NCBI GenBank assembly: GCA_033980235.1
Contig: CM067075.1
Location: forward strand, 11,382,292-11,446,291
Source: Diadema setosum
Taxonomy: Eukaryota; Echinodermata; Echinoidea; Diadematoida; Diadematidae
DNA length: 64,000 nucleotides
Reading direction: 5' to 3'
The notes under the pieces: model-generated
Told to the model about the DNA's origin: nothing
What the model saw: the letters and a program-made list of their open reading frames with translations, nothing else
The model's database searches: none
Shown: in pieces, positions 3,775 to 45,792 of the stretch
How positions within the stretch are numbered: position 1 is the first letter of the stretch
How the letters are laid out: each line of letters starts with the position of its first letter
Position numbers and translations under genes: made by a program

Positions 3775-3808
3775 GTCTAACCAGGGAGGTTCACCTCCCT
3801 GGTCTAAC
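3775..3808. repeat. Micro-palindrome site B: 20-bp insert with 7-bp duplication GTCTAAC
   Basis: The insert at 3782-3801 is CAGGGAGGT, TC, ACCTCCCTG. It is flanked by GTCTAAC at 3775-3781 and again at 3802-3808. It lies 28 bp beyond the right end of the probable solo LTR. See the findings for the family. Confidence 0.85.
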
Positions 3809-4230
3809 TCACAAGACGTAGTTATTTGTAATATTATCATCAAAAATCCGTAACAATATGATACCGATGAGCATTAGCTTCGGTGCACAGAACTATATTC
3901 GTTGACCGGTGCAATAGAGTGGTCTTCGAATGTACACCGGTGGGCAGCGAATTAATGGGGCCACTAAATGAACCCAACGCCACTGGGTCATCAACCCTTT
4001 ATGTACCAATGGGTCAAATGTGCACAACTCTCACACACAAACCTATGAGCAGATAATTTAATGTGGCACGCAGATGGTTCACAAGCTGATACCGGAAGAC
4101 TACCGAGCAAAGCGAGATTGATCTCCGGACTGTCGTTCACCACGAAGCCTATAACCAAAGACTTGTAATAAGACACGAAAGTGCTCGCTAATCCTGTGCA
4201 AAACAATGGACAGCGCGTGGTCATCAAGCG

Positions 4231-4500
4231 TATTACGCACATCACCTGAGACCACAGTACCTAACTTCAAAGATAGCGCGTCTGGGGGGGGGGGGGGGGG
4301 GTGTTTCATCAACGTTTGTCAGCGCAAAAAGTTGCCATCGCTGACAATCATCATAGTAACAGTCAGTGACCAGAGCATCTCAGCCAATCAAAACCAAGGA
4401 TTTTGCTGAAATTGTCAGCGCTGACAAACGTTGATGAAACACCCCCAGGTGATGTGCGTCTTTGCCTGAGACCAGTGCCTGAGACGCGCTATCTTTGAAG
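4231..4500. repeat. Foldback MITE with G18 run
   Basis: Inner TIRs GTGTTTCATCAACGTTTGTC (4301) and its complement ending at 4446 enclose about 95 bp. The outer flanks ACTTCAAAGATAGCGCGTCT (4264) and its complement (near 4480-4500), and CGCACATCACCTGAGACCA with its complement, are also inverted but in rearranged order. A homopolymer of ~18 G sits at the left junction and a run of C at the right. Confidence 0.65.
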
Positions 4501-4731
4501 TTGTTGTTGTTTATCAATTGACGTCTTTCGGGGAGTGTAGCCTGAACTCTATTTTTAGATCAAGTTGTTGCCAAAAATCCTTATTACTTTAAAATCTCGT
4601 TCTTCAGAATAATCCCCTTAATCGATAAAAAGCTACGACTATAATTTCTAAATCTTTTTAAAATAATAAAAATACCACTACCTATGGAAATGAATGATGT
4701 TCCTAGGTGTACTGAGTTTGTACTTAGCTCT

Positions 4732-5542
4732 TGTAGCGTAGCCGGGGAGCGGTCCAAGAGCCTTAATTCTTGTGTCTACGTACAGGTATAATGTGTACTA
4801 TGTGTAGCAGCACATCAGCACCTTATTCATATAGCTCTCATATGCAGCCTACATGTATCTCATACACCACGTCTCTATACGTGCATTCGGACTCACTAGG
4901 CGCATTAGAAACCCAGGCATATCATTCTCCCAATCAACCATACAGCAACCCATTCACAGGGTCTAGTATTACAGACTACCAGTTGCAAGAAGGAGGCTGG
5001 TGTGGAAACGACAGTCCGAAATACGGTTCAGTGCAGCATTGCTATATTATGTTTCCTGCTGTACATTACAACCGATGGTTTTCTCTGCTAAGCTCTGAGT
5101 GGTTCCCCATTAATTCTATAGTTTATTACCAAAAAGGAGAGAGTGCTGTGGTCCCGCACCTACCCCCCAACCCAACTGAAAAGTTGTGCAGTGAGCTCGC
5201 GGTATTTATACCCTCTCGAGCCAGGGTCACGTGACCAATCCTGTCTTATTAACCCATCATGTATCAAAATGTATTGGAGTACTATGCGACCCTACTTCTA
5301 TGGCTTAATAATTTCTGAGCCCTTTTCCCTAGGGCTTCTGGCCTTTTTTCCCTACTTTGGACATCATTAACCTTGGTTTCTGTACAGGGTGTTTCACAAA
5401 ACTATAGGGTGTTCCAAAACCTTCTATACAATTTCTCCATTGGAAATGCACGGGGGCAAACTCTATGGGATTTTTACACATGTTCAGAAATTAAGGGCAT
5501 GAGCCGCATATTTTAAAGGTGCTCTGTCGCATTTTCGCTACA
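4732..5542 (-). repeat. 3' LTR of the gypsy element
   Basis: Same 811-bp sequence as 9261-10071; I found no difference by reading. TATAAATA on the minus strand at 5203-5210. Preceded on the minus strand by the purine tract at 5543-5556. Confidence 0.95.
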
Positions 5543-5556
5543 CTACCCCCTCCTTA
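5543..5556 (-). promoter_or_regulatory. Polypurine tract
   Basis: Minus strand AAGGAGGGGGTAG abuts the TGTAGCG start of the 3' LTR. This is where plus-strand synthesis is primed in LTR elements. Confidence 0.75.
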
Positions 5557-6479
5557 AAATGAAACCTACTCCTGGAGGTTGGTGTGGAATGTTTTGTCAT
5601 TACTCTCTCCACTATCAACTGTATCAAAAATCAAACATATCAAGTTATATTATTCCCACTATCATCTTGTAATTCCCCTATGAGCTTTTGGGTGTCTACA
5701 GAGCTTGCAGATTACAAACGTGAAAATGTATTTACAAAGTGTACATATATACATCCTGAATCATGGAGTTTGAATTTTGGTGGGGCATTTCTCCCCATTC
5801 CCAGGCCGAAATGTTAGGACATAGTTGGGTTTTCCTGTAATTTGCTTCTTCTACCAATTTCTCATTTATGTAAACCGGGAACAAAATCAAACTTTTCCAA
5901 ACAATATAATTTGGGACCTCCATGATTCGGGCTTACAGGTTCAAAACAATCCAATTCAACAGTTAGACTTATGTCTATACTATCTTCGTCTTCTCTTCTT
6001 CATCTTCTTCATCTTCTTCGAGAACTTCAATTTCTTCTATGTCTCATTACATGCATTATTTAACATCTCAGATTTTCTTCATCAATTCTTCTTCTCAAAC
6101 GGGCACGGTAGTCACCGGGGTTTGTGTGGTCGATCATCCTCAGCTGCAAAACCAATGTGTGTGTCGTTGATCATCCTCTGCTGCATTTCCCAGGTTTGTG
6201 TCGTTGGTTCTCAGCAGCTAGCCAAGACGTGGGGCTAGCTTCGATTTATAAAACAGTCCAAAATGTCTTCTTTCTTTCTATCTTTTTTTTCTACTCGTTC
6301 CTATTCAAACCAAAATTTGCCAGAATAAATCAGGATACAATTTGGGTTGGATGAGTGTGGACCAGTGTCTGTATGTTAAACCGCATACAGTGAAAGGTGC
6401 TACCACTACTCATCCGAATTTGGATAAAACGCGCTATGTATTAACGACGGAGGACGATCACTGCCACTCGCACATTAAT
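5557..6479 (-). other. 3' non-coding part of the gypsy element
   Basis: No integrase motif in any frame. A CTTCTTCATCTTCTTC run lies near 5994-6030. Three imperfect ~50-bp units built on TGTGTNGTNGATCATCCTCNGCTGC fill 6115-6240. Otherwise featureless. Confidence 0.6.
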
Positions 6480-7316
6480 CTAGCCCATCAGACCCGTCTC
6501 TTGTGGTCCCAGTATGTCTTCATATTTTGTGATCGTGAAGCTGTTCAACGCTTCTGCCTTTAAATTTTCAGGTACGTTGAGCTGCCAGATGATTTCACTG
6601 CCAGCTTCACTTTCCAATCTATGGTAGAGCAGACCATTCCTCAGATACAACCTGTCCCATTGCATCCAATATGCTTTGAGTTCCGGTCCTTCCAGTGACA
6701 CTTCTTCCCACGGTGGTCGATAATCTGCCTGTTTCCAAGCCATAACCTTCCGAAGACACCTGTCTTCTTGTTGAGCATCGGCCACATGCCCAACTCTCCA
6801 GCTCCCTATACCAGAGCAATTATCCGGTCTGTCCTGAGCGTCCTCAGGCTGACCCGACTGTATCCCTACACTGTGAACCCGGACATTAGTCCCATGAGCT
6901 TCCTGCTCATCATCCGAAGCAAAGCCCTTTGCCTCTTTCTGCTCACAATGCTTACAGTCCACGCATGGTCTACGTGAAAGTCCATCAGCGTTCCCATGCG
7001 AATTTCCTGCTCTATGCTGGATCCGAAAGTTATAAGTACCGAGGAGTTCAAGCCATCGTGCTACTTGCCCCTCCGGGTTTTTAAACCCCATCAACCACCG
7101 CAGTGCCCCATGATCAGTACGGATCAGGAATTCTGCTCCATAGATGTAAGGGTGAAAGTGTTTCACTCCCTGAACGAGTGCCAACAACTCCTTCCTAGTC
7201 ACACAATACTGCCTCTCTGCTTTATTCAAGGCACGGCTGAAGTAAGCTACAACACGTTCCTGGCCATCTTGTACCTGTGAGAGTACTGCGCCGATTCCGT
7301 CATTGCTTGCGTCTGT
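6480..7316 (-). pseudogene. Gypsy pol remnant: RNase H and start of integrase; RT deleted
   Basis: Opens with TDASNDGIGAVLSQ, the first RNase H motif, followed by RKELLAL, RTDHGALRWL and GNADGLSRR, so all four acidic RNase H residues are present. Then comes a tether and LLYHRLESEAGSEIIWQL, the beginning of the integrase zinc-binding domain. Near 6540 the expected frame is lost and the integrase core (D,D-35-E) is absent. The reverse transcriptase that should lie between protease and RNase H is entirely missing, and the RNase H frame is offset from protease. The remnant is not expressible as a Pol protein. Confidence 0.9.
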
Positions 7317-8105
7317 TGTCTTTGCTTGTTCTGATAGACTCTACTGTAGTCTCGTCATTGGCTAGCACCTCATCTACTTCCTGACATGTTGCTACCTTAG
7401 TGTTCTTGTATATCGTCTGTGTCTCTTCAGCGACGTTTGCTATCCTTATTGGGACTGTGTCTCTGCCTGTGCCTATTAGTACTCTAGCTACTAATAGTGG
7501 GTATTTCTCCACGAACTTCTCATTCGGCTCCATAATCATACCATTTGGTAATGTGGTTGGTACCGCATCTAATCTCCCTGGGACAATGGTCTCTTCTCCT
7601 GCCTTAATGCATATTGTCTCTGTTAAACGCACTGTGTAGACGGTTGGGTAGTCATGCTGCTCTGCATCAATAATTTCATCTCCAACCCGAACCATATTCT
7701 GACTTGGTTCAATCGTACATTTGAAAAGCTTTAACAGATCCATCCCGATTATTGCTTGTGGCTCTATGTCAGCTATCCAAATGTCATGACGCAGGGTGAC
7801 ATTTCCAATTTTGATGCTCATTTTGCCCTTCCCTTGTATTGGTTTGGTTTCCCCATCTGCCATGGTCATGTCTACATCAGTCCACTGTAATTCAGGCTTT
7901 TGATTTGGTTCAAATTTCTCAAACGTCTTTGTACTAAGTATTGTTGCATTTGCTCCTGTATCTACCAAAGAGTGGATTTCTTGCCCATTGAATTCTACAG
8001 GTATAATGATGCCGTCTGTTTCTCCACTGCAGAAGCGCGTAAACACTGTATGGGGCCGTGAGCTATCTACTGCCGGTCCCCGACCCCTGGACTCGGCTGG
8101 GCTGA
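7300..8105 (-). CDS. Gypsy aspartic protease, expressed by frameshift from gag
   Basis: Open frame continuous from the frameshift site to a stop at 7300. LVDTGANATIL carries the retropepsin D-T-G catalytic motif and AIIGMDLLK the conserved I-I-G-x-D-x-L segment. It would cleave the Gag-Pro polyprotein. No separate start is needed; the first in-frame ATG is at 8046. The C-terminal ~100 residues are the linker that normally leads into reverse transcriptase. Here the frame runs out at a deletion junction near 7300-7316, where an RNase H segment follows in a different frame. Confidence 0.9.
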
Positions 8106-9176
8106 GTTTCCCTGCCTACTTTCTGAAGTTCCACCGTGTTGTGTATGCATTCTACCTCCGGGGCTCTGGTTCTTACAGTCTTTCTGCAAATGCCCAAGTC
8201 TTCCACATTTCCAGCATCTCGGCGGACCAGATGAACGCCCGCCCATTTGTGTGGGCTCAGAATCTCTGTGGAAGCCAGTCTTTTTCGCCACCCCTGCCTT
8301 TGACAGCTCTGCCATAACTGCAGCTACAATTTTCTCCACTGCATCTGAAGAAATGACTGCTCCATCATCTTTTACACTGCCCATCTTATTATCAACGTTA
8401 ACGTTACGGACCTGTTTCCTTTGTGGGAAATTTCGCCTACGCTCTGCTATTTGGAAAGCCTCAACTTCTACAGCAGCCCCAATAGCCTCCGTAAGTGAAG
8501 TAGGATGAGCGTTATACACTCCAAATCGGATATCGGGGTCCTGAATCGCATCTATGAAATGGTCTTTAGCTAGAACATCTTGCAGCTCCGCCTTTGCTGT
8601 AGGATACGCCCTCCTAGTAAGGCGCCGCACCGCTTGCCCTAGCTCTGGTAGGGATTCATCCTTCCCCCTCCTCCTGTTTCTTAATTCTGCGCGATGCATC
8701 TCGGTTTGGTTTTCGGGTTGAAACCTAGCCTTTAGGGCAGCCTCCAATGACTTGAAATCGTGCCTTTTCTCTGATTCGAGATCGCTCAAGACGGCTCGAG
8801 CATCTCCCCTCAAACTGGCTGCTAGCTGCATTGATTTTGTCTTGTAACCCCATCCATTCAGTTCTGCAATAACATCAAACTGGACTGCAAAATCATCCCA
8901 AGCTGACGATCCATCATAAGTGGGAGCCTTAGCTGTGTTACTGCGTTTGTTTTTGGGAGCTTTGTTCTGCTTTAAAAGCCTGCCAAGCATTGTAGCCAAA
9001 TCCTCATTTTCCTCCCTGTCAGATACATCTGTTTCCGATGAATCTCTGGCTTCATTACCCTCATCTTGCCTGCCTTGTGGTTGAAAAATAATTTCATCGC
9101 TTTCCATGCCTGGGCTGCCAACGTCATTCTCCATTGTGATAGTATGGGCTCGTATCACTGGATCTTGGGATTTCAA
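8067..9176 (-). CDS. Gypsy Gag polyprotein with CCHC zinc knuckle
   Basis: 369-residue open frame. The acidic N-terminal ~60 residues are followed by a capsid-like region typical of retrotransposon Gag (TYDGSSAWDDFAVQFD near residues 86-101, LRGDARAVLSDL). Near the C-terminus a zinc knuckle CWKCGRLGHLQKDC (C-x2-C-x4-H-x4-C) starts at residue 321. Gag packages element RNA into particles. The frame is undamaged. It starts 61 bp after the primer site and ends at 8067, after the -1 frameshift heptamer at 8106-8112, so Gag is the default product and the frameshift gives Gag-protease. The first ATG (9176) is taken as start. Confidence 0.92.
   Translation of the reverse strand: MKSQDPVIRAHTITMENDVGSPGMESDEIIFQPQGRQDEGNEARDSSETDVSDREENEDLATMLGRLLKQNKAPKNKRSNTAKAPTYDGSSAWDDFAVQFDVIAELNGWGYKTKSMQLAASLRGDARAVLSDLESEKRHDFKSLEAALKARFQPENQTEMHRAELRNRRRGKDESLPELGQAVRRLTRRAYPTAKAELQDVLAKDHFIDAIQDPDIRFGVYNAHPTSLTEAIGAAVEVEAFQIAERRRNFPQRKQVRNVNVDNKMGSVKDDGAVISSDAVEKIVAAVMAELSKAGVAKKTGFHRDSEPTQMGGRSSGPPRCWKCGRLGHLQKDCKNQSPGGRMHTQHGGTSESRQGNSAQPSPGVGDRQ
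8072..8112 (-). promoter_or_regulatory. Programmed -1 ribosomal frameshift signal (gag to pro)
   Basis: In the gag frame the codons read CAG GGA AAC, giving the slippery heptamer G GGA AAC (8112-8106). An 8-nt spacer is followed by GCCGAGTCC (8097-8089) and GGACCGGC (8079-8072), which pair with one bulged A around a 9-nt loop. The protease frame is exactly -1 relative to gag and is open through this point. Heptamer, spacer and stem fit the standard retroviral-type signal. Confidence 0.8.
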
Positions 9177-9236
9177 AACGCTTTTCTCAACGTATACCCA
9201 TGTATTCTACAATTGCCTGTTTCAAAATCTTCCCAA

Positions 9237-9255
9237 AATCCCACCGCTGCCACCA
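9237..9255 (-). promoter_or_regulatory. Primer binding site matching tRNA-Leu 3' end
   Basis: Five bases inside the 5' LTR the minus strand reads TGGTGGCAGCGGTGGGATT. Its complement, AATCCCACCGCTGCCACCA, equals CCA plus the acceptor and T-arm of animal tRNA-Leu (AAG/TAG type) as I remember it. Minus-strand DNA synthesis would start here. Confidence 0.8.
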
Positions 9256-9260
9256 ATTTT

Positions 9261-10071
9261 TGTAGCGTAGCCGGGGAGCGGTCCAAGAGCCTTAATTCTT
9301 GTGTCTACGTACAGGTATAATGTGTACTATGTGTAGCAGCACATCAGCACCTTATTCATATAGCTCTCATATGCAGCCTACATGTATCTCATACACCACG
9401 TCTCTATACGTGCATTCGGACTCACTAGGCGCATTAGAAACCCAGGCATATCATTCTCCCAATCAACCATACAGCAACCCATTCACAGGGTCTAGTATTA
9501 CAGACTACCAGTTGCAAGAAGGAGGCTGGTGTGGAAACGACAGTCCGAAATACGGTTCAGTGCAGCATTGCTATATTATGTTTCCTGCTGTACATTACAA
9601 CCGATGGTTTTCTCTGCTAAGCTCTGAGTGGTTCCCCATTAATTCTATAGTTTATTACCAAAAAGGAGAGAGTGCTGTGGTCCCGCACCTACCCCCCAAC
9701 CCAACTGAAAAGTTGTGCAGTGAGCTCGCGGTATTTATACCCTCTCGAGCCAGGGTCACGTGACCAATCCTGTCTTATTAACCCATCATGTATCAAAATG
9801 TATTGGAGTACTATGCGACCCTACTTCTATGGCTTAATAATTTCTGAGCCCTTTTCCCTAGGGCTTCTGGCCTTTTTTCCCTACTTTGGACATCATTAAC
9901 CTTGGTTTCTGTACAGGGTGTTTCACAAAACTATAGGGTGTTCCAAAACCTTCTATACAATTTCTCCATTGGAAATGCACGGGGGCAAACTCTATGGGAT
10001 TTTTACACATGTTCAGAAATTAAGGGCATGAGCCGCATATTTTAAAGGTGCTCTGTCGCATTTTCGCTACA
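9261..10071 (-). repeat. 5' LTR of the gypsy element
   Basis: 811 bp, ends TGTAGCG/CGCTACA. A minus-strand TATAAATA at 9732-9739 (context GGTATAAATACC) is the likely core promoter of the element. Plus-strand open frames inside both LTRs are duplicates and look non-coding. Confidence 0.95.
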
Positions 10072-12806: not shown

Positions 12807-13080
12807 ATCATACAGTATTACAGTGCCATCGGTGCATGTAGTAGTCTTAGCGCAGACTCCTTTACAATCAACAAGTTGTTTGTGTCTGCAAACTGAATGA
12901 TTGCCATGGTTCACTTGAGCCTTTGATTCTGGTGAGATAAAAATGAAGGGCAGTGTAGCGCACTGTCCCCAGTTGTTAGTAGCATTCAATACACCACAGA
13001 TCTCAAAGGAGTTGGTTCGTAATAAGAAATAGACTGACGATTTTAATGTATTTGTTGTTGTTCTTTTCTCTTTAGCTCAC

Positions 13081-13376
13081 CTGGATGGAGTACAAATAGG
13101 AGTAGCATAAAACTGGGTAAACTTCATCCCGTTCTGGGCCATGGAGTCAATGTTGGGCGTCTGTGACGTCGGATGTCCATAGCAGGCCAGATCTCCGTAG
13201 CCCAGGTCGTCGGCCAAGAAAATAATGACATTTGGCTTCTCCCGCTGACTCGTGGCTAGCAGGGCATCCTCTATAACTCCTTCCCATTTAAGACTGTGAC
13301 TCCCATCGATCCGGGCAAAGTTGCCAATTAGGAAAATCAGAGTCTCGAAAACTTTGATGAACATTTTGCGTTCCAT
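13081..13376 (-). CDS. Arylsulfatase A-like gene, first coding exon (signal peptide and active-site cysteine)
   Basis: This exon encodes the N-terminus of a secreted or lysosomal sulfatase, which hydrolyses sulfate esters. I chose the ATG at 13376 because it is followed by MERK and a hydrophobic stretch that reads as a signal peptide; an upstream in-frame ATG at 13439 would add 21 mostly charged residues. Visible sulfatase features are the metal-binding pair in LADDLGYGD (residues ~56-57) and CTPSR (Cys95, the residue normally converted to formylglycine, and Arg99). The exon ends CTCCATCCAG followed by GTGAGC at 13080, a canonical donor in phase 2. The Arg codon of CTPSR is split across the intron: AG here and A in the next exon. 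The neighbouring exons at 826-1325 and 155-299 complete the same reading frame. Upstream 5' exons or a promoter were not identified. Confidence 0.88.
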
Positions 13377-14599
13377 GTCGATGGGGATCTCTTCTCGCCG
13401 TCGGTTGGTGCGTATACGCAAATCGTCCTCTGCAAGCATTCAACAATTCGAGCCGATCTGTGCAATGGTATGTAAGGGCAAACGGCTGAATGCATTTCTG
13501 CAAGGCTATTCTGAATTCATTTGCCCTTCCGTGACGGCCCCGTTTTATCAAAAGATAAAATCGATTATAAATTTCCTTACCACACAGTCTGCCATAGACT
13601 TACAGTTGAAATCAACTTTATAATCGATTTTAACTCTTCATAAAACAGGGCCCACGTGTAGGGCCCTGTTTTATCAAAAGATAAATTTAACGTTAAATCA
13701 AAATAATCTATGATTAACCTCTCAAATCAACTCCAAGTCCACTTAATCTATGATTAACTTCAAGGTCCACTTGAAGTCCGTCTTATCAAGACACCCAGAG
13801 TTGACATCAACTCCAACTTCCTAAAAAATCAACACATAAGTTTTCTCAACCGCTCCAAATCTATGATTAACACTAACGGGTGATAGATATCAACATTAAG
13901 TAGAAACAGTCTAGGTAGACTCAATAATGTAAGGCAATTTACAGAAGAAAGATGACTGTCACACTTTCCTAGTCTAGCTGGGGTCTTGTCACAAATGTTT
14001 GTCTGTTAAATGCTAACCTTTCTCTTACATTTTGTTGCGTTTCTTTCATGTAATTATGGTCTTTTCCTTGCATGAAATTCACGATCGGCACGCATTGCTT
14101 ACGCGACTGCTGCACGCAAACACCCTCGACAGCAGTCGCAATCCCAGCCTGCGCGCCTGGCGCCTCGGCACGCCGTCCGCCCGCCAATCAAGCTATCGCC
14201 AGCAAGCAAGTAACCGAGTACAGTACTGGAACTGGAACCGCGTCTGTATGTAATGCATATCTTGCCAAAGTAAAGAACTCATATGCGAGGAAACCAGTGA
14301 TTTCTGACGTACGTAAGCCTACGTAGAGTTCGACAATAGATACTAATTAAGAGTTTAGTAGGCATATTATACAGAAAATAAAGAGTTTAATTCTATATAG
14401 CACCGAGTACGACAGGAACTTGAGATCCAGCTTAACGTTAGGCCCAACTGGTTATAGATAGAGCGTCTAAGTAAGTCATTCTAGAATTTCGACATGTTGA
14501 TGTTGTAGACTTGCGATCTATTCTTTTAATACAAAGCCGATCTGCGCCGTGGAGGTAAAAACAAGCTACTGTAATCACCACACTCTCACAAGTTTCCAT
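13377..14599. other. Region upstream of the sulfatase start, with short MITEs
   Basis: A ~116-bp element at 13538-13653 has ends CCGTTTTATCAAAAGAT and CTTCATAAAACAGGGCC with inner arms AATCGATTATAAA. A second end, GGGCCCTGTTTTATCAAAAG, starts at 13661, and a related one lies at 23560-23695. I see no TATA box or CpG-rich promoter that I would assign to the gene; 13970-14300 is locally GC-rich and is the likeliest place. Confidence 0.5.
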
Positions 14600-14636
14600 A
14601 ATTCCTAAATTATACAAGTAATAAGAAGTATAATTA

Positions 14637-22225: not shown

Positions 22226-23018
22226 CTATGTGGTAGAAGTCCCTTCACTACATTTGGTTGTAGAAGTTGGGAGCTCACAAGACCCAAGGCCTCGTGAAGG
22301 AGGGTCGCCCAATTTTTGCTCTCGATTTTTGGTGTGAGAACTGCTTGGCCATTCGATGGCAATTGAGCATTTGCTTCGCGATTTTATAGAGCACTTACCT
22401 TCTGATATGGGCAGTGTGACTGCCTTCATTAGCAAATCAGCCAATTTTTATATTTGGCCCAAATGAGATCAGAATTTAAGTTAAAATCAAATTTGGTACC
22501 AGGCTTTGAAAGAGTTTGGCTGTAAGGACATGGCATCCGGATCAATTCGGTTGTCAAAATGACCATAACCACAAGGGCAGAGTCGAGCTGGCCACCCATA
22601 CAGGGCAACGCAATCAGTTTTGCCAGGAAGGAGGCTGACATGAGAATATCGTCGTCTGTTGAGCTGCCGATGGGGATGGCTAGCTCGCTGAAGTCTTCGA
22701 TGGGCGGGGCAGCGCCCCTGTCCCCGCGGACATGGCTCGCATGTCCGGACTAATCGCCGGGAGGAGAAGCTCTCCTGCACCAGCTGGCATGGCTCGCATG
22801 CCGTTTGTCATTACCACGGTGTGCCGCCGCCCTATCCATGAAGCGGGAGAGTATCTCGGTCCCTCTAGTTGAGCTTCAAGGCGGCCTTCCATGCCCTGAT
22901 CTCCCCGCGGGGATGGGGGCTGAGAGGTAGCGTCGTCTTCCTGATCAATAGACATTGGAGTTTGAGATGTATAATCAGGGAGGTGTCTCACCTCCCTGGT
23001 ATAATTCACTGCCGTCAC
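22226..23018 (-). pseudogene. DIRS gag-like ORF1 remnant in three frames
   Basis: Frames of 112 aa (22680-23018), 70 aa (22429-22641) and 72 aa (22226-22444) lie end to end in different registers, which suggests one ORF1 broken by frameshifts. The segment with CMGGQLDSALVVMVILTTEL and KFDFNLNSDLIWAKYKNW is the best preserved. Function is inferred from position only: first ORF after the 5' terminal repeat. A micro-palindrome sits in the N-terminal part. Confidence 0.5.
22969..23005. repeat. Micro-palindrome site A: 23-bp insert with 7-bp duplication GTATAAT
   Basis: The insert 22976-22998 has arms CAGGGAGGTG / CACCTCCCTG around TCT. GTATAAT is at 22969-22975 and 22999-23005. Insert plus duplication is 30 bp, so it adds ten codons to the DIRS gag-like frame without shifting it. 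Confidence 0.85.
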
Positions 23019-23021
23019 ACT

Positions 23022-30306: not shown

Positions 30307-30656
30307 CTACAGTCAGACCATTATGTTATGTTACTCCCGCACGCAGTGCGCACGGGGCTGCTTCGTGCGGCTGCGTGCAGGTTCGTGCGATCTCGCACGG
30401 GAGCGTTATGGCTCCGTGCGCCCCTGTACGCGCCCGTGCGTAGTCGTGCACCTCCGTGCGGATCTGCACGCCCCCGTGCAGATCCGCACGCTGCGTGCGA
30501 ATCTGTACGCCCGCGTGCGGATCCATACTCCCTCGCACGCTGTCGCACGGGCCCGTGCGAGTGTGGCGCACGGACCCGTGCAGCTCTGCCGCACGGACCC
30601 GTGCGGCTATGGGGTGCGATTTCGCACGGCCCCGTGCCGCCAGTGCTTGGTTCCCG
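30307..30656 (+). repeat. GC-rich array with 10-bp period, copy 1
   Basis: Starts CTACAGTCAGACCATTATGT, then TTACTCCCGCACGCAGTGCG, identical (inverted) to the other copy at 53160-53508. The body is a run of ~10-bp units of the form CGTGCNNNNN or its complement GCACG, e.g. CGTGCGGCTG, CGTGCAGGTT, CGTGCGATCT, CGCACGGGAG. The array has few stops, so several frames stay open; I read them as artefacts. Confidence 0.85.
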
Positions 30657-30686
30657 CATGATCCCATCCAACCTCCCTGGTTCCCG
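30650..30686. repeat. Micro-palindrome site F (imperfect): insert with 7-bp duplication GTTCCCG
   Basis: GTTCCCG at 30650-30656 and 30680-30686 flank a 23-bp insert beginning CATGATCCC and ending ACCTCCCTG. The right arm belongs to the CAGGGAGGT family; the left arm instead resembles CATGGACCC of the insert at 49255. Confidence 0.6.
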
Positions 30687-30718
30687 CAGTGCTTACATGG
30701 TACATGTACAGTACGTGT

Positions 30719-30756
30719 GTGTTATCAGGGAGGTGAGTGTACCTCCCTGGTGTTAT
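30719..30756. repeat. Micro-palindrome site C: 24-bp insert with 7-bp duplication GTGTTAT
   Basis: Insert 30726-30749 has arms CAGGGAGGT / ACCTCCCTG and loop GAGTGT. GTGTTAT is at 30719-30725 and 30750-30756. Confidence 0.85.
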
Positions 30757-30980: not shown

Positions 30981-31013
<33 letters not shown>

Positions 31014-33685: not shown

Positions 33686-33871
33686 TACTGTGAAAGTGGA
33701 AATTTTTTCGCGCAACCAGAAACTAGCGCGAAAATAAAAGCATGCAAATATTTTTGCTTGCCATATGTTTCTGTGCCTGATGTCTTGATTCCACAGATTT
33801 AAAAACACGTGAAGCTCTTCTTATCCAGCCAAATGCTAACAATATGTCGCTAGATATCCACTTTTACAGTA
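33686..33871. repeat. MITE, TACTGTAAAAGTGGA family, copy 2
   Basis: TIRs TACTGTGAAAGTGGAAATTT and ATATCCACTTTTACAGTA; same interior as 32249-32465 with more substitutions and deletions. Confidence 0.88.
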
Positions 33872-35125: not shown

Positions 35126-36585
35126 TGTCAATGAACTGACAAAGTCTCCTAATCAATGTTTCTATTCTTGTTAGAAAGTCATTAAGCGCTTGCAACAACA
35201 GTGCTCTACGGTACTTGATAAAATCTGTCAGAGATTGAATGGTGTTCATCCAGGGAAACAAAATATAGCAGTGTGCAATATGATAAGTAGATCTTCTCGT
35301 TTATGTCCTGCAGGTTATCCTGGAGGCCATAAAGAGGAGAATCATCATAAATATGCACGGTCAGGTACCGGTACTGTACTGTGGTAACCGCAGCAGCGAC
35401 CCCAACACTACTGGTTACGGCGCCCCGCGCCGGGGTTAGTACTGGGGATACCTACATGCAAGTGTACAATGCAACACAGATAGAGAAAGGATTAGAAAAC
35501 GCATAACAATTTTTCCAACCATTACTCAAAATTAATCATAATACGGTTAGTCAGGGCACCAGTTTGCCACGTCTACAGGTAGGACCCAGGTTTCGACACC
35601 CAGCAGATAATTCTTGTTAAATTTCATACTAAATACAAATGTCTGACTTCAACAATCAACAAAGTTATCAATCACATTTCTAGTTTTTATAAACCCTGTT
35701 TGTCACTTGTCATCCTAATCCGATGGTGGAATATTTAGGGGAAAAGCAACACAGTGTCAGCAGAAATGCTGATATCAGCCATTTTTAGGGGTTCAAAACA
35801 ATATGATGCATTTTGTATGACATCGCCGTAAAATGAAATTCACCCATGACCATTATTTTACTTTAGTATCAATTTGTTTGCCATATCCTGATGTTTGATT
35901 TCTGTAATCGCCTTAAGTAATTGCATGGCTGAAATTCGTAATTAATGAGCAAACTTGTAGAAGGCGTTGGCTTTGAGAATGTGGCACCAGATTTCGACAA
36001 TGAAACAACAAGTTCTTGCGCTGGTGTGATTGCTGGTTTGCGTTTACAATGCAGTGTATGCGTACTGTATGCACCATGTGTTTTATGTGTGATGCGTGCT
36101 GCATGATTGCGTCGAAAAATGATGCTGGGCGTCCAAATCTGATGCCAGCGACAGCGTGACGGAAATCGCTTAAAATTGAACAAGAGCGCATTCAAATGGG
36201 AATTTGTTTAAGGCATATCATTATTGGCCTTTAAAATAGCTCAATTTCATATCGAAATTCTCAGGTAAAACGGTGCAGTATTGATGGTAAACAAGGAAAT
36301 GTGCTAAAGTGTCGAAAACTGTAACTACGACCAGCAGCCCCATACGCATCTACGCTGTGCACAGAATGGGCTGCCGGTCGCAGCTACGAAAACCGGCACC
36401 CTAGCTGTATACTAGTATATCAGCGGCAGCGTAATTCTGATCATTCTTTATTAGTAAGCCTATAGGTGATCCCGGTGAGCTGTAAAATCCAATCCATAAT
36501 CTCAGGGCCACCAACATTGGAAACTAGATTAGATCTACAATTGTAGTTGTACAGTTGTAGTTCAGTGTTAGACTCCCATATGCTA
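35126..36585. other. Unassigned DNA
   Basis: Two local hairpins stand out: GGTTACGGCGCCCCGCGCCG near 35412 and a stem GACCAGCAGCCC/GGGCTGCCGGTC at 36329-36382. No gene recognised. Confidence 0.4.
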
Positions 36586-39500
36586 TAATGCAGCTGTCAT
36601 TTGTATGACGCACCTCTTGACCCCCGGGAAATGTGCGTCATGGTCGCGTCAAGTACCACCAATTTGATGACGCGTGGTGCCGTCACGGGAGCAAAATGTC
36701 CGTCACAATACTGACCCATAATGTGCGTCATAGTCGGTCATTTAACCAGAGTGTGTCAAAAGGTTCGTTAATGGGACCGTCATGTAATTTTGCGAGGCTT
36801 CTTGCATGGGGCATGGTATCCCTCCGTAACAGCATAAAACAAACTCGCGATCGCGAGTCGGCCGAATTCACCGGCTTCTGGAAACGCGAAAATGACACAA
36901 TTTTCAATCAGTTTTATTATAACATACTGATACTCACTTCATTCTCGTATGTCTTCTTTTTCTATCTGATGTCAGACTAAAGGTCTTTTCAGAAAGTTTG
37001 AGTACAAATTTGCTCCAAAACCACACTACCAAACACGATTTGTGATTAAAATCATCACATACAGCCCGCGGCATCGCGAAGCTCGCTATCCTTCAATCGC
37101 ATTCACAACTGTAGTGTAGCATCGACCGTCGACCGTGGAACCTGAAGCAAAACCACGTGCGTGATGTCGACCATGTGGTACATGTATACATACAGTACAC
37201 GCGTACATACGTATACAGAAGGCGAGGCATGGCAGAGGCCAGGCCCCAAAACATACAAACGATTATGGAACTAACATTACTGAGAGTCTATTAAAACCTG
37301 CATTAACTTAAAATAGTAAATTCTATTTAAACACTAGCCATATAAACCATGTACCTAACTTGGGTTTAATAAGGTTCGTGTTTAAATAGGCAGGGGCTTC
37401 AATCAAGCTGTTTTCGAATCGGGGAAGGGAAGGCGGGAGGTTACGGAAAAAATTACTGTGGCCAGGCCGTAGTTTCGCGAAACTAGATAGTTTGCCATAG
37501 CAACGTGTATATCAAAACACGCGTTTCTATGGGATGTCCATGAACTAGGGAACGGTTTAGAGAAATTCGAAGTCATTCGAGGTTGAAGTGGTTTTTTCCT
37601 ACGCATTTTTTTTTTTTTTGTTCATATCTAAAAAATTCGATTTCTTAATTTTTTTTGAACTGGTATTTGGGAGTCTTGTAATATATTTAAAATGTTGATA
37701 GAAATTTCTGAATATATTCAGAAAGTACGCCTAGGCGCCTACTGTTTGGATAAACGGTAAACATGCAGTCTACGTTCGATACGAAGAAATCATTACGTCT
37801 TTCACGAGGAAAAAACATACAAAACAAACAAAAAACACCTACGAACGAATGTTGATAGCCAAAACTTTGATAAGTAATAAGCAGTTATCATGAGCGTGAA
37901 CTGAAATTAATTGTCATGATTTTGTTGTCTAACCAGGTGATGACTGCATCTCATTGAACCTACTCGTAGTGAATTTCTCTGGGCATACGAGACCTTTTAA
38001 GTATTTCTGGCTCAGTTGCATTTTTAATTGACTGATTAATCGATCTTTTTTTTATTGTTCAGGGAACATAAGATATTCGATCAAGTACATTATATTCGAC
38101 TGTTTGATGTTTCCTACTATGCGCCAAAAGAAAGGCTATAGAATCACGATATCACGAATGATTCCTTTAATTCAACTAATGAGCTGGTTCTTCGATCGAT
38201 ATTTCCATGATATTTACACGCTGTTTATTCCAGTGCGCGCATTCTTCCGTCTGGCACGCACCTGGGTGTGGCACATGCTTTTGTGGAAATTTCCACAAGG
38301 GGAGAGGGGTGGGGTGTCAAGTTTCTTCGAGCCGAAGAGACTACGTGTAAAACAATCTCTTCGCTCTAATTTATTGTCATTCGTGCTTTCCCCTTATTCT
38401 TTGCTGATATTGAACATTTAGATTTAACTTTACGAAGGTTGGTAGCACGTGGTTCTATTTTGTTGTGAGGTGTATGTAATTTCTTTTTTTTTTATCATTC
38501 TTGGAAAGGAAAAGAAGAGTAAGGGGGAAAGAAGAATAAGAGGGAAAGTAAAATGGAACGAACGGCACGTACGCTCAGCATTCACAGTAAGCCGTCTTTT
38601 TACACCAGCATAGTTATCATCATCACCATCAGACATCACTCAGACCATTTTAGCCTTTTCCTATCAACATTAAGAAAAATAAATAACAAATACAAAGTAT
38701 CAACACCTCCCAACAACACAAATATTTAGAAAAGACAACACACGGCACACTACAGCGGCTGGTATCAAACTTCGTCGCTTCGATTCGAAAAAAGTATTGC
38801 AGCAAAGCGGAGAAATCGCCGTTACGAAAATAGCAGTGCGAGACACTTGAAAGAATTACGTCAAATACTTCAAAGTATAAAGGGAACGGATAAAGTGATA
38901 TAAAATGGAAGAAATCGTACCAAACCATGTGTGAAAAACGACACTGCGGAACGGTAAGTTTAGTACATAGTAGGCTTAGTCCCTAGCAACAGTTTACAGC
39001 ACCGAAAGCTACGCGAAAATAAGGTGAAAATAAATACACATTGGAAACTCGGTATTGCGACAAGATCCTTAGGATCAAGTCAATAAACGATACAAAACAA
39101 AGGAAATCAATTCAATTTGACCGGAAAATAGTTTGTTATAAGTATTCTGTTGTATGAGATCTCCTTTGATAGGCCGAGAAATACATCGAGCTTCCACGAT
39201 ACTCGGGAAAGACAGTTCGAACGCTTTTCACCTGCACATACTGCAGTGCACATCAATACACGAACAGAAACTCACCTCTTCTTGCAGAAAAATGATGCAA
39301 TAACGTTACAAAAAACACACACAACACTCTAAAAATCATTTCATACTTGGGAGGCAAGGGACAAGCGGATGAAGAAGAAGAGAAAAAGAAGCAGACATTG
39401 CACAACGGAACGCTTCTACCCCGATTCGAATCGAAACAGGGTACTGGAGTGTAGTAGCAGCTGGCTACAGTGTGCAGCTAAGCTACTATACTAACGCTCC

Positions 39501-39881
39501 CCAGCCGCCCACAACATGGGGATACAGTACCACGGCGATCGAAGTAAACATCCAGGGTCCGTAGGCGAGAGGGATTCACGCGGGCGAAGTTCCGTTCGGT
39601 GTACACAGTTCGCAGGCAGCGAATTGCGTGAGCGCACACAGAGCTCTGCAGCATTCCAGTCTGGCACGTACTGCGAATAACATGTGCGTCAAGGGTCAGT
39701 CATTTTCACGAAGAGGTGCGTCACCATTTTGACTGGTTAATGCGTCAATGTCTCATAGAGGTGGGTCACTTTTTGTGACGGAGGGTACGTCATGGTACCT
39801 AAAAGGTATGACGCACATTGGTACTTTGACGCACCTATCCCGGGGGTCAAGAGGTGCGTCATACAAATGACAGCTGCATAA
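36586..39881. mobile_element. 3.3 kb Harbinger-like DNA transposon, non-autonomous
   Basis: 41-bp perfect TIRs at 36589-36629 and 39838-39878 start TGCAGCTGTCATTTGTATGA and are flanked by TAA on both sides (36586-36588, 39879-39881). The 3-bp TAA duplication is typical of PIF/Harbinger. Both subterminal zones are dense in TGCGTCA/TGACGCA. I find no transposase or Myb-like frame, so I take it as non-autonomous or decayed. Confidence 0.8.
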
Positions 39882-40905
39882 TTTGGGTGTCAAAATGAGT
39901 GAGATCAATAGAAATGTATGCAAATGAAATGAAGCTTTAACAATTAGACGTGTAAACTGAGCAGTCAGTCTGAGGATGATGAGGTGAGCTGTGAGAAAGG
40001 AACAAAATGAGCCGAGTTGAGCGAGTCTCACTCTCAGTGTGAGTGAGAGTTGCAGTTGGCATGAAATCTAACCTAGGCCTTAACTGCGACAGCCGCCACA
40101 CGCAGTCGGCGGCGCGGTCTCCGGGGCTAACCTAGGCCTATGCCTACTAGTGTTTACATCTTTGTACACTGTACGGTTAATGAACAGTGCTAAAGTAATT
40201 GTAAATTAGATGTGCGGTCATGCCATCGCCACATAGATTACACATGTATGCAAATATCACACATGATGTCCCCTGTCCCCCTATTCCCACATCCTGTCCC
40301 CCTATTCCCAATACTCTGGTACTAGACCTAGTCAATTCTGATGTGGGATGAGCAGTAATTAATTTTTAGGTGTACCAGCCTGTCTGCCTTGCCTTTTTTT
40401 TTTTTTTTTTTTTTTTTTTGAACTGACGATATGCGATACAGTGTAGATGAGGATAGACCTGGACTGAGTGGAAGCTCGACTGCTGCTACACAGCAGTCTT
40501 CCAGTATCTTCGGTAAAGGTAGAGGTAAATGATCACGGGCATGGCACCACGGGCCACCACCACCATGACCACGGCCATCGTAATCGCCGGCCACGGAGTT
40601 TCATTTGACGAATGAGCAACGCTAATTTCAATGTATGGGACTACCTCCGCACAAATTACCATCATCAGCAGCAGCACGGATAACTACAATACACAGCAAC
40701 AGAACGGAAGTTCCATAATTCCATTACGCTGTGGTCAGGTGGAGATTTGACTTACAACTTATTTTAAGCGGCTTTGAATTTATCTATGGACGGCATTGAT
40801 GTATCAATAGGGTTCCCCATCAATAGCAAAGGGCAGATCTGATCCAGAGTCCCGTACCAGTATGCATGGTTTGCTATAAACGGTGCATTTGCGGTCAGTC
40901 CTAAA
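39882..40905. other. Unassigned DNA
   Basis: A T run near 40397-40420 and short GC-rich patches at 40080-40130. No gene recognised. Confidence 0.4.
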
Positions 40906-40943
40906 GTCGACCCGCCTTTTGTTTTAGACGGCACAGATTGGGG

Positions 40944-40975
40944 ACCCTAACCCTAAACCTAACCCTATACCCTAA
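40944..40975. repeat. Interstitial telomere-like repeat, left part
   Basis: ACCCTAACCCTAAACCTAAC then CCTATACCCTAAAG: degenerate CCCTAA units, cut by the insertion at ~40979. Confidence 0.85.
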
Positions 40976-41006
<31 letters not shown>

Positions 41007-41007
41007 T

Positions 41008-41726
41008 GTTGTATTGGCGTAACCCGCCCGACCCTAAAAATTCCGCCGACCCTATGTTTTTTTATTATTTTTTTTTTGCTATCGATATCAAGTATCTTGT
41101 TGACTGCGATCGTGATCGCAAAAAAACCCGGAAGTGGAAACGGCTCTGGGGATATCGGATGTGATGTACGACTGAAAGATCACGAGAGAGATCTCGCTAG
41201 CGCTAGCGCCTCGCATAGCCTCGCTTGATCCAGGGAGGTACCACCTCCCTGCTTGATCAGTACGTCATCTGTTTCCAACACGGACGCGTACTCTATCAAG
41301 ATTTATACAGTGTATACTTGCATTCAGACTGCAATGTATTGTGCATAGTTTTGCCATAGGTTTCTTGTGTGGAGAACTTACACGAATCTGTATATGTGGG
41401 ACTGTAATAGAGATCGCCGTGTGCGATGAAAAGATCGTACATATGGGTCAATTTGCATCTATCTTATCTAAGTCAAAATAGTAAAATATGAAGTGAAAAC
41501 ATTCAGGATAATGATTTCAACATCTTTAAATTCCGTGAAGGGGTATAATTTGAGTAATATCGGCCTCATAAATGATTTGTAGAATAGATGAACACAGCAC
41601 ACGGTGCGGCAGTTGTAACTGTTTACTGTGAGCGCGAGTTTTACACGTAAAATGCAGGTAGCAAAAAAAAAAAAAAAAACCGCCCGACCGACCCTATTTG
41701 AAAATCTCATGTTACGCCAATACAAC
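41008..41726. repeat. MITE with GTTGTATTGGCGTAAC ends, copy 1
   Basis: TIRs at 41008-41023 and 41711-41726, bordered outside by ~27 A on the left and ~28 T on the right. The interior (GCTATCGATATCAAGTATCT, GATATCGGATGT, ATTTATACAGTG, GTAAAATATGAAGTGAAAAC) matches the copy at 52345-53010. Contains micro-palindrome site D. Confidence 0.88.
41224..41258. repeat. Micro-palindrome site D: 21-bp insert with 7-bp duplication CTTGATC
   Basis: Insert 41231-41251 has arms CAGGGAGGT / ACCTCCCTG around ACC. CTTGATC at 41224-41230 and 41252-41258. The paralogous MITE copy at 52525-52531 has a single CTTGATC and no insert, so this is an empty-site proof. Confidence 0.92.
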
Positions 41727-41755
41727 CTTTTTTTTTTTTTTTTTTTTTTTTTTTT

Positions 41756-41851
41756 GCCTAATCCTATTCCTAACCCTGACCATCAAACCCTAACCCTATT
41801 ATCCTAACCCTGGCCCTAACCCTAACCCTAACACTCAGACTCGTGTATTTC
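41756..41851. repeat. Interstitial telomere-like repeat, right part
   Basis: Degenerate CCTAAT/CCCTAA units ending in ACCCTAACCCTAACACTC; continuation of 40944-40975 on the other side of the inner MITE. Confidence 0.85.
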
Positions 41852-41921
41852 CCATAGGTAACTTATGCGCCATGCCCCAATCTGTGCCGTCTAAGGAAAA
41901 AAAAAAAAAAGCAGGCGGGAC

Positions 41922-43344
41922 ACAGAAAAAAAAAAATGCCTTCGTTCGATCATGGAGCTACTCACGGTCGATCCAACCGGTTTGACTGCATGGGGTGGTC
42001 GGTTGGACCCTCTGGAACACCCGTAGGAAGTATGTGATTCCAAATTATGGTGTTCATGAAATTTTACAGTCCACTTAGAAACGACAAGATCTTATTGTTC
42101 GAAAAAAAAGGTCTGCGCATTCTAAGACTACTACTGTACACACAACAGTGGTACCAAGTGAACCGTTTTGTTGTTGTTGTTGTTGTTTTTTTTGTTTTTG
42201 TCCTTGTCGCAATCACTGGCTATGCGCCCTCACTCGGCTTAGAGCCGTTGATGTAAGAACAGAAAACTGTTGATCCCATGATCCGAAGGACTCCTTTACA
42301 AGGTTACAGCTTGTTATTCCAAAGGCTCTTTATTCCTAAAATTCGTTATTCCAAAGGTTCATTGTTCCGAATTTTATTTTCGGATTAACCAATCTTCTGA
42401 ATAACGAACCTTCGGAATAACGAACAGCACCCCTTTACAATGGGAGGCCATTGTACACTTTCTCTTTGATGTGTTCTACTAATATTGCTGCATTGTTCAC
42501 TCAATCCGCATGTCTATGAAGGTGAACTTGTCCTTTAACTTTTGTTCCTGCTATAATGGGAGCTGCTTTTGTTCCTCGAAGCGAGAGGGTCAGCTTTTTT
42601 CTGGTGGTCAAGTCTTTTATGCTTTTTCATCTTGATGAATTTCACTAATCGTCCCCGATGCTATAACACAAAAGAAGAAAACGTTTTGTTCTTGTCTATG
42701 CGTGACACGCGTACATTGAACAGCTAGAGCAGAGAAAGGACCCTTGAACTATGCCGCCAGTGAGGTGGTACCACACGCACAATGTACATTCCCCAGCTGT
42801 GTGTTCGTGTGTTGTTGTCGTCAGTGATTGTCTCCTAAGTTCGAAGAATAACTGAAGTCATTTAGACATAGTAATCGATCAGGGTAACATAATATTATGA
42901 CATAAGTATAGAGAGTTGAAGATTGTAGGCCTAGTTATTTTGATATAGGCTAAGTATCAGAATAAGCCCATAGGCAGTGTTCGCACCAGCAATAAGTGTA
43001 TGTACTATTAAAAATCAGCGCTGGTTTTCACCCAAAGCCGATTTGGTTCACGCTTACTATATAACACTTGAAATAATATGTGTGTATGTACACGTTATGC
43101 ATATGTATTAGTATACATGTATGTGTACATCGTCCATTGTGTTGGACTTGGAATAGCATTATAAGAAGAGGAAATCTCGAGTAAGGCATTAATTTTGTAG
43201 TTCCAGAAAAGTTTTCAATAACAAAACTTTCTAGAAGGCTGGGCGCGAATGACGGCTTTCAGAGGCGTAAACCCGCCTTCATACAATGTATCGCACAGGG
43301 CGTTCTTTTAGTGAGGGTTAGGTAATACCATTAAGATTATGTCA
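41922..43344. other. Unassigned, with a GTTATTCCGAA repeat
   Basis: At 42310-42430 variants of TTCGTTATTCCGAAGGTTC occur on both strands, forming a loose palindrome. 42440-42545 resembles one arm of the TTAAAGGG MITE at 47265. No gene recognised. Confidence 0.5.
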
Positions 43345-43900
43345 TTTATTTATTTATTTATTCATTTATTAAGTCTTCTTTAAAAGCAGGTCAAGTAGTC
43401 CCATTCAGTGCCACAAAGGCCTGCTTTACAAGGGAGTCCTGTGTCGCTGTACATCGCAACATTACATGTGCACACACGTGGGTAAAACAAAGAACAAAAC
43501 CGGCGAACACACTATAGTAAATGGGATACGGCTAAATAGCAATCGGTTTGTAAGAACATAAAACACATAGGAAAGAACATAAAACGAGCAGAGGAAAAAG
43601 ATATATTCACAGTTCATACACTTTGCTAGTGCAAAGGGTTCATATCAAATGAGACTTGAGAGATTGATGTTGGCGTACACGATTCTTAAATGTTTGCAAT
43701 GAGGAGGCTTTTTGAATAAAAATGGGTAACTCATTGAATAATTGTTACTTGCAGCACGTGATAGAACATTTCTTTATTCATATTCATGATTAAGTTTGGG
43801 TATATGTAATTGGCAAAAAAGGTATGAAAATATCAATATTAGTGGCAGAGTCAAGTCAAGAGAATAAGATGAGATCCAGTCTCACGAAAAGCGAACAAAG
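43345..43900 (-). repeat. LINE 3' end in reverse orientation
   Basis: On the minus strand GACTACTTGACCTGCTTTTA leads to AAGAAGACTTAATAAATGAA and AATAAATAAATAAATG, the tail of a CR1/L2-like LINE. The rest has no readable RT. Confidence 0.5.
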
Positions 43901-44713
43901 TAAAGAAGGTTTCAAAGAGAAATAATTTGCGTACATATGCCCCCCCTTTTTTTTACATTTGTGCATACTGAACATTGTTATATCTGTCGAAATCATTGGT
44001 GAATTGTGTTGGCTAGGCATATCGTATTTCAAGAAGGATTCATATTCAAATGGAGTATTGTCTTGGACAAAGCGCACGTATACATTGGACTGTACAGCTG
44101 TACATGTAACTTCTAACGGAGTGTATAAGAGAGATTCTTGTTTCCTCTCATTTTTTAGAGGGGCAATCCTGACAATTTTCTCAATTTCACATCATGTGTG
44201 TACATAAATGAACAGATCAATGTGATCCTTGAGCAGATGAACCTATACCTAGAAAAACAAAAACAAAACAAACCCTAACAAATTACACTGAACAATGTGG
44301 GTAACGTATAGACTATTGGCAGATAGGGATGTCTTCGCGCAATTCCGAAATGAGAACGCTTGTTCTGTGTATGATTATAATATGCATGAGAAAACTGAAA
44401 AACTCGGTTCCTAGCTGAAGTGTCATGTATCCAAAACTAAAAACTAAAACTGCAGTTAATGTCTGTATGCCATTACCTTATTGAATGAGCTTATGAAAGA
44501 GTGTGGAATACTGACAGACGTGAACAGCGTCATCTCTGCATAATATAATTGCAAATGCATGTGTTGCGTTGTTGTTGTGTTGGTGTTTTCTTATTCTTGT
44601 GTTACCAATTTTGACACTTTTGGGTTTGCCGTTCCGCGTTCCACTGTACAGGATTACATCGTTTTGTAGTGTGCCATAAAGCTTGTTCTTTCATTTTAAA
44701 ATTTGTGAATGTG

Positions 44714-44714
44714 C

Positions 44715-44764
<50 letters not shown>
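44714..44764. repeat. (TG)n microsatellite
   Basis: About 22 uninterrupted TG units. Confidence 0.95.
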
Positions 44765-44768
<4 letters not shown>

Positions 44769-45749
44769 CTTTTTCCGACTGGAAATACAGGTCCTACACA
44801 ATTATTCATCATACTTTTAAAGCTTGAAAATCATTCTCAATGATTTTAGAACGCTAAACAGTATCAACTGGTGCGCTATACCGCTATCGGGAAAATTTCC
44901 CAAGTCAGAAAATAGCGCGCTATCTCGAAACATCGGGCTGATGTGAAAACGCCTAGTGTTATCTGATATATAGTTTATGAATTATTAAGAATCACGAGTG
45001 GAAGATGTTTTCTGAAACACCTAGTACAAGTTTCCAATACAGGCACGACAGGCGCACTAGGCAGAAACCCTTGTGTGTATAGTAAAGTCTGTGTGCGCCA
45101 AGACTATTACACGCACCACTGCACTACAGCCGCTCCCAACAAGAAAGAGATAAGATAAGATACAATGCACGGTAAACATAATAATAGGCATGAATGTTTA
45201 TTGATTCATTGAGCTATTAAACATTTTGAATAAGAGTGCACATTTTCCAGAACGATTGAAATCCGAAATCTTGCGTAAGCTAATTTTCAATTGAATTCAT
45301 CGATCCTTGCAGGTTATAGTTGATCATGTGTCTAAGCTCCTTGATGGGCCCATTTGCAAGTATTTTGCTGACATTTTAAAAACTTCAAGTTTGTATCAAT
45401 CTGTATAATGATGAAAGTACTAATAATAACCTACATACGTACGTCTGTAGGATAAGGATGTAGGCCTGTAAGGTGATCTTTGTTCGATTGTTTGATATAA
45501 TACTATTTATTTTCCGCAAATCAGCATACCTAACTTACATAAGCAGTAACATATTGGAAATAAATGATTATCCAAATTAATTTAATACAGAGTCGTTTGA
45601 CTTGCATAAACAATGGTAATAAAAGAAAATTAATGATTTGATTTACTATACAGTAAGCATGTCTAGGTAGCGGTGATTACAATAACAATGTAGTTAGGAA
45701 GCGGTTATGCAGAGGGCGGTCATTCCTTCCGCAATTCTCTGGGTGCTTA
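44765..45749. other. Unassigned DNA
   Basis: No repeat partner, RNA gene or coding domain recognised. Confidence 0.4.
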
Positions 45750-45792
45750 CACGAAACAGGGAGGCGATTTCCTCTCACCTCCCTGCATGAAA
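45750..45792. repeat. Micro-palindrome site E: 29-bp insert with duplication CACGAAA/CATGAAA
   Basis: Insert 45757-45785 starts CAGGGAGG and ends TCTCACCTCCCTG; flanks match 6 of 7. It retains the longest arm of the set. Insert plus duplication is 36 bp. Confidence 0.78.

What the first reader, a model, noticed from the sequence alone, without database searches (positions are those of the whole stretch)
3775..45792. A family of 20-29 bp palindromic inserts (arms CAGGGAGGT/ACCTCCCTG), each with a 7-bp target duplication
Five clear sites (3782-3801, 22976-22998, 30726-30749, 41231-41251, 45757-45785) and one half-site (30657-30679) share the same 9-bp arms but have different loops. Each lies between 7-bp direct repeats: GTCTAAC, GTATAAT, GTGTTAT, CTTGATC, CA(C/T)GAAA, GTTCCCG. 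One arm is often longer and then always extends the same way (GTGA, GTGAGA, GTGAGTG), so the inserts look like remnants of longer TIRs cut at different points. Inference: they are excision footprints of a cut-and-paste transposon whose ends stay at the donor site, as in P elements, where cleavage falls 17 nt inside the TIR and duplications are 7-8 bp. Alternatively they are an ultra-short mobile palindrome. At about one per 9 kb they may be a major, overlooked source of small insertions.
Basis: partly seen in the sequence, partly recalled or inferred. Interest (0 to 1): 0.92.

Follow-up and report, generated by a model that had tools for sequence, protein, structure and literature searches.

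The report
Thousands of P-like transposon excision scars
The short palindromes are best read as scars left where P-element-like jumping genes cut themselves out of an animal (probably echinoderm) genome, which keeps thousands of such palindromes as a natural record of how these DNA breaks were repaired.

Summary
Observation confirmed. All six listed inserts and their 7-bp repeats are as stated; a motif-blind scan adds a second family, 49255-49279. The window's 886-Mb genome holds 3359 exact CAGGGAGGT-N0-15-ACCTCCCTG palindromes, 0 of the reversed control. Of 52 with flanks read, 40 have perfect 7-bp duplications, 7 differ by one base, 5 by more; chance palindromes: 0 perfect of 135. At site C, 14 copies of one host repeat show 4 empty sites and four different palindromes at one insertion point: excision scars rather than a mobile palindrome. 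Duplications follow GTTNAAC, the 7-bp motif reported for the P-superfamily element 1360. The second family (90 palindromes) has a full-length source: 14,138 bp, 33-bp inverted repeats, perfect 7-bp duplication, P-type transposase domain inside. Retained ends stop at about 17-20 nt, as P's 17-nt staggered cut predicts. Not found: the autonomous CAGGGAGGT element; its P-like nature is inferred from shared anatomy and target motif.

The parts
3775..3808 (.). Site A: GTCTAAC - 20-bp scar (3782-3801) - GTCTAAC, family 1
22969..23005 (.). Site B: GTATAAT - 23-bp scar (22976-22998) - GTATAAT, family 1; a second genomic copy of this host stretch (L142) has a scar differing by one base
30650..30686 (.). 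Site F: GTTCCCG - 23-bp one-armed scar (30657-30679) - GTTCCCG, family 1; present in 30 of 30 host-repeat loci read, so old
30719..30756 (.). Site C: GTGTTAT - 24-bp scar (30726-30749) - GTGTTAT, family 1; 14 copies elsewhere give 4 empty sites and four scar versions
41224..41258 (.). Site D: CTTGATC - 21-bp scar (41231-41251) - CTTGATC, family 1
45750..45792 (.). Site E: CACGAAA - 29-bp scar (45757-45785) - CATGAAA, family 1
49248..49286 (.). Site G: CTTATAC - 25-bp scar CATGGACCCTACCGTAGGGTCCATG (49255-49279) - CTTATAC, family 2; reads as 13+12 nt of the ends of the C11 full-length element
52325..52937 (+). Second copy of the repeat that holds site D; empty site, single CTTGATC (about 52525-52531)

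Best explanation
Each insert is what remained after a P-superfamily-like DNA transposon excised. Insertion duplicated 7 bp of a GTTNAAC-like target (shown). The transposase cut each end with a long stagger, about 17-18 nt inside the element, leaving TIR-derived tails on both flanks (inferred from where the scars stop). The tails were closed by end joining with trimming or a few added bases, giving duplication - partial TIR - partial inverted TIR - duplication (shape shown; repair route inferred from Drosophila). Two TIR families left such scars here: CAGGGAGGTG(G/A)... and CATGGACCCTACCACAA.... The second has a full-length 14.1-kb source enclosing a P-type transposase domain (shown); for the first the source is inferred. 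Host repeats carrying an insertion were multiplied and then lost the element more than once (inferred from four scar versions at one site).
For: 3359 palindromes against 0 control; 40 of 52 perfect and 7 of 52 one-mismatch 7-bp duplications against 0 perfect of 135 decoys; empty site of D; 4 empty and four scar versions among 14 copies of site C; target motif GTTNAAC in both families, 0 of 5000 random draws as high, equal to 1360's motif; family 2: 90 palindromes, control 0, 7 of 9 perfect and 2 of 9 one-mismatch duplications, full-length inverted pair C11:7587517-7601654 with 33-bp TIRs and ATTTCAT on both sides enclosing PF21787 match C11:7597575-7598009; longest retained ends 11-20 nt in 26 distinct scars, 18+17 and 18+18 scars in family 1; same layout as Drosophila P repair junctions with 17-nt tails.
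Against: No autonomous CAGGGAGGT element found: candidate L241 has no matching duplication and its end is single-copy. In the family 2 transposase frame (L203) only the RNaseH-N domain was found, not the GTP-binding or RNaseH-C domains. 5 of 52 palindromes lack a good duplication. Two family 2 scars retain 20 nt and several family 1 ends 18-19, slightly beyond 17. Site C versions could in part be later small indels.
Confidence: 0.9

Rival explanations
1. Ultra-short mobile palindrome: the 18-31 bp units themselves transpose in trans with a 7-bp duplication.
For: High number and exact 7-bp duplications.
Against: Interiors differ from site to site and follow two truncated TIRs; four versions at one insertion point; a full-length source exists for family 2.
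Confidence: 0.04
2. Scars or remnants of a transposon of another superfamily (for instance hAT, whose ends also often read CAGGG, recalled).
For: Family 1 has no transposase linked to it.
Against: Duplication is 7, not 8 (0 of 52 equal at 8; hobo 8 bp in PMC3276498); motif equals 1360's; sister family with the same anatomy is P-type. That hAT excision does not leave TIR tails is recalled, not tested.
Confidence: 0.07
3. Extreme internal deletions made by interrupted gap repair, as in non-autonomous P elements, instead of simple end joining of the cut ends.
For: Interrupted repair after P excision is well documented in Drosophila (PMC2895639, passages).
Against: Deletion breakpoints would scatter along the element; here longest retained ends lie at 11-20 nt although up to 26 could have been seen for family 2 and its TIR is 33 bp.
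Confidence: 0.07
4. For site C only: one scar, later changed by indels within the palindrome, instead of separate excisions.
For: The versions can be related by deletions of 3-5 bases and small changes; other indels exist in these copies, many of them farther downstream.
Against: Four states within 24 bp, while alignment columns 694-1188 hold only two one-base indels outside the insert among the 10 insert-bearing copies; each version is itself a regular two-ended scar.
Confidence: 0.25

Closest known systems
Drosophila P element excision junctions (PMC2895639, section 7 with Table 1 read)
   Same: Duplication - partial TIR - partial inverted TIR - duplication; up to 17 nt of each end; short microhomology or filler at the joint
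   Different: 8-bp duplication; laboratory excisions in repair mutants, not thousands of fixed genomic copies
1360 (P superfamily, Drosophila; PMC3276498, passages)
   Same: 7-bp duplication with motif GTTNAAC
   Different: Known from insertions; no scars described in the passages seen; transposase relationship not tested
Galileo (P superfamily, Drosophila; PMC4168063, passages)
   Same: 7-bp duplication, motif GTANTAC / GTATTAC
   Different: Long foldback-like TIRs; no footprint mentioned in that text (0 occurrences of the word)
Zebrafish Pdre2 / THAP9 (PMC10983969, passages and section 6)
   Same: P-type transposase, CA...TG ends, excision shown in assays
   Different: 8-bp duplication, 13-bp TIR CATACCTGTCAAC

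Membership tests
P superfamily (family 2, CATGGACCCTACCACAA) | P-type transposase inside the element | tested here: met
   PF21787 match C11:7597575-7598009 lies between the facing ends C11:7587517 and 7601654
P superfamily (family 2, CATGGACCCTACCACAA) | GTP-binding insertion and RNaseH-C domains in the same transposase | tested here: inconclusive
   Not found in the single 623-aa open frame of L203; introns and the rest of the element not read
P superfamily (family 2, CATGGACCCTACCACAA) | N-terminal THAP domain | tested here: inconclusive
   No THAP match in the 9 open frames scanned, single frames without introns; some carry zf-AD-like or RAG1-N-like stretches instead
P superfamily (family 2, CATGGACCCTACCACAA) | TIRs and a 7-8 bp target duplication | tested here: met
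   33-bp identical ends, ATTTCAT on both sides; 7 of 9 scars perfect, 2 of 9 one mismatch
P superfamily (both families) | GT...AC type target motif | tested here: met
   Symmetrised GTTNAAC in 40 family 1 and 8 family 2 duplications, 0 of 5000 random draws as high
P superfamily (both families) | Cleavage about 17 nt inside the TIR | tested here: inconclusive
   Indirect: retained ends stop at 17-20 nt; cleavage itself not assayed
P superfamily (family 1, CAGGGAGGT) | P-type transposase inside an element with these TIRs | tested here: inconclusive
   L241 has such ends around a PF21787 frame but no matching duplication and a single-copy end; 18 of 48 transposase matches had no locus read
hAT superfamily (family 1) | 8-bp target duplication | tested here: not met
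   0 of 52 equal at 8 bp, 40 of 52 equal at 7
1360 / Galileo clade | Transposase grouping with 1360 or Galileo | not tested
   No tree was built

The most novel reading that the evidence does not exclude
This genome carries a scar-dominated P-like transposon load: scars vastly outnumber intact elements (3359 exact family 1 palindromes, and no facing pair that proved to be an intact element among the 100 listed of 626 family 1 18-mer ends; 90 family 2 palindromes against one intact facing pair among 43 17-mer ends). In this lineage excision breaks would be closed mostly by end joining instead of template repair that restores the element, so the elements burn themselves out and leave thousands of datable break-repair junctions.
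Probability: 0.45. Interest if true: 0.72.

Novelty: new member of a known kind. Interest (0 to 1): 0.57.

Why it matters
P-type excision scars are known as laboratory products. Here they form a countable class of genomic repeats with known ends, a known target motif and, through host repeats, several outcomes of what looks like one insertion. That makes germline end-joining choice, element loss and the generality of the P-type long-stagger cut testable by comparative genomics in an animal far from flies. It also warns that short palindromes between 7-bp repeats can be transposon scars.

Tried and rejected
Rejected: chance; mobile palindrome; hAT by duplication length. L241 as source of family 1: inverted ends but no matching duplication, single-copy end. 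L245, a facing pair of 18-mers on C2: an inverted host repeat with a whole scar at each side, not an element. L242-L244 (blocks 99.0-100% identical, with a P-type open frame, starting CATGGACCTACAACG): the right end guessed with its duplication was not found on C12 (5 matches elsewhere, reversed control 1). L181/L189 homology limits are not TIRs. Window 11080, a lone CAGGGAGGTGATG: no partner with a 7-bp duplication. Literature: (search listings) showed no paper on genome-wide P-type scars; most subscription journals are not held, so this does not prove novelty.
Full report
What is there. The window lies at G000:C17:11382292-11446291 of an 885.7-Mb assembly in 96 contigs. The best match with a named animal source to its sulfatase exon is an arylsulfatase A-like protein of the sea urchin Lytechinus pictus, 60% identical over 42% of the query, so an echinoderm is likely, species unknown. 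A scan blind to the motif found, among 382 inverted repeats, four with a flanking repeat of exactly 7 bp and none with 6 or 8-12; one of them, 49255-49279, has other arms (CATGGACCCTA) and is a second family.

More than chance. The genome holds 3359 exact CAGGGAGGT-N0-15-ACCTCCCTG palindromes and 0 of the reversed pattern. The listing shows 50 places, all on contig C1; I read the flanks of 48 of these 50 plus the four exact ones of the window. Of these 52, 40 have identical 7-bp flanks, 7 differ by one base and 5 by two to six. A few are copies of one insertion carried by host repeats (L156 repeats window sites C and D, L142 repeats site B), so the number of independent insertions is lower. 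Palindromes of the same form from prokaryotic and viral contigs gave 0 perfect 7-bp flanks of 135, 1 with one mismatch and 4 with two. The second family counts 90 palindromes, control 0; of 9 fetched, 7 have perfect and 2 one-mismatch 7-bp flanks. The genome average of family 1 is one per 264 kb, so the window is unusually rich.

Insertion and excision. Site D lies in a repeat whose other copy in the window, 52325-52937, has a single CTTGATC and no insert: an empty site. A search with the site C region gave 66 matches; 30 loci were read. Fourteen of the 30 carry the site C flanks. Four are empty (single GTGTTAT). Ten have an insert between GTGTTAT duplications, in four versions: core GTGAGTGTACC in six (the window among them), GTGAGACACC in two, GTGACC in one, GTGAGACC in one. 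The simplest reading is one insertion, multiplication of the host repeat, then separate excisions. Some versions could be later small indels: among the ten copies, alignment columns 694-1188 hold two one-base indels outside the insert, but many more lie farther downstream. Site F is in 30 of 30 loci and therefore older. In L174 the target GTTATAC was used twice, leaving two scars in a row.

How far the ends reach. The 18-mer CAGGGAGGTGGGAAGAGA gave 299 and 327 matches, control 0. Twenty small stretches were read; of the 17 single ends, 11 show the 7-bp target again a short way on (one mismatch allowed) and 6 do not; scars of 18+17 and 18+18 nt occur. Apart from a few that look like copies of one host repeat, the single ends share no sequence behind the 18 nt. 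Since the search demanded an A at position 18, this sample cannot tell a limit of 17 from 18. For family 2 the source TIR is known. Twelve of 26 join without added or lost bases, 13 have filler of 1-6 bases, one a one-base overlap. Drosophila P transposase leaves 17-nt 3' tails, and its repair junctions have this layout (PMC2895639, section 7 read; 17-nt staggered cut also in PMC7776569, passages).

Which transposon. The P-type transposase domain PF21787 gives 48 matches in this genome and none in 14 control genomes. The 17-mer CATGGACCCTACCACAA occurs 43 times; two copies face each other at C11:7587517 and C11:7601654 and enclose the transposase match C11:7597575-7598009. The two ends share 33 identical bases and are flanked by ATTTCAT on both sides, 7 and not 8 bases. 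This 14,138-bp element explains family 2, and window site G reads as 13+12 nt of its ends. In the open frame of L203 only the RNaseH-N domain was found; the rest of the gene was not read. Another gene, L181, has HTH, RNaseH-N, GTP-binding, RNaseH-C and THAP9-C domains and matches the solved Drosophila P transposase 6p5a at E 1.2e-15, but is not linked to these TIRs.

Family 1 has no such source yet. It shares with family 2 the 7-bp duplication, the target motif, the CA...TG ends and the scar shape. The symmetrised motif of its 40 perfect duplications is GTTNAAC, the motif reported for 1360, a P-superfamily element with 7-bp duplications (PMC3276498, passages), and close to Galileo's GTANTAC (PMC4168063, passages). 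None of 5000 random draws of window 7-mers scored as high, for either family. L241 is a suggestive but unproven source. I hold P-like excision as the mechanism for both families; membership is shown for family 2 at the level of the catalytic domain and inferred for family 1.

Novelty. P-type excision junctions are known; what I did not find in print (listings) are such numbers of fixed scars, two families side by side with a 14-kb source of 7-bp duplications, and several scars at what looks like one insertion. I rate it a new member of a known kind, with an open and testable question: why scars so outnumber intact elements.

Noticed in passing
window about 30300-49300; L211-L224: Sites C, F and probably G sit in one large host repeat: five family 2 places lie 15-20 kb from five matches, on the expected side, and C1 carries 30666-36589 and 39878-41311 at 98.5-98.8% identity without the 3.3 kb between them. 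What the host repeat is was not determined.
   Followed up: partly
L190, L199, L209, L241: A second group of P-type transposase genes carries zf-AD-like (L241; L209 below cut-off) or RAG1 importin-binding-like (L199; L190 below cut-off) N-terminal stretches before the RNaseH-N domain.
   Followed up: partly
L242, L243, L244: Three blocks 99.0-100% identical, at three places, start at CATGGACCTACAACG, a relative of the family 2 TIR, and carry a P-type open frame; right end not found: possibly a recently active P-like element.
   Followed up: partly
window 4770-9763: An LTR-retrotransposon-like element: the same 154-aa frame at 4770-5234 and 9299-9763, with gag, protease and RNase H matches on the minus strand between. 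Described only.
   Followed up: no
window 809-1315 and 13077-13439, minus strand: Sulfatase exons (PF00884) on either side of the LTR element.
   Followed up: no
L174: Two scars in a row sharing three copies of GTTATAC: a duplicated target used again.
   Followed up: no
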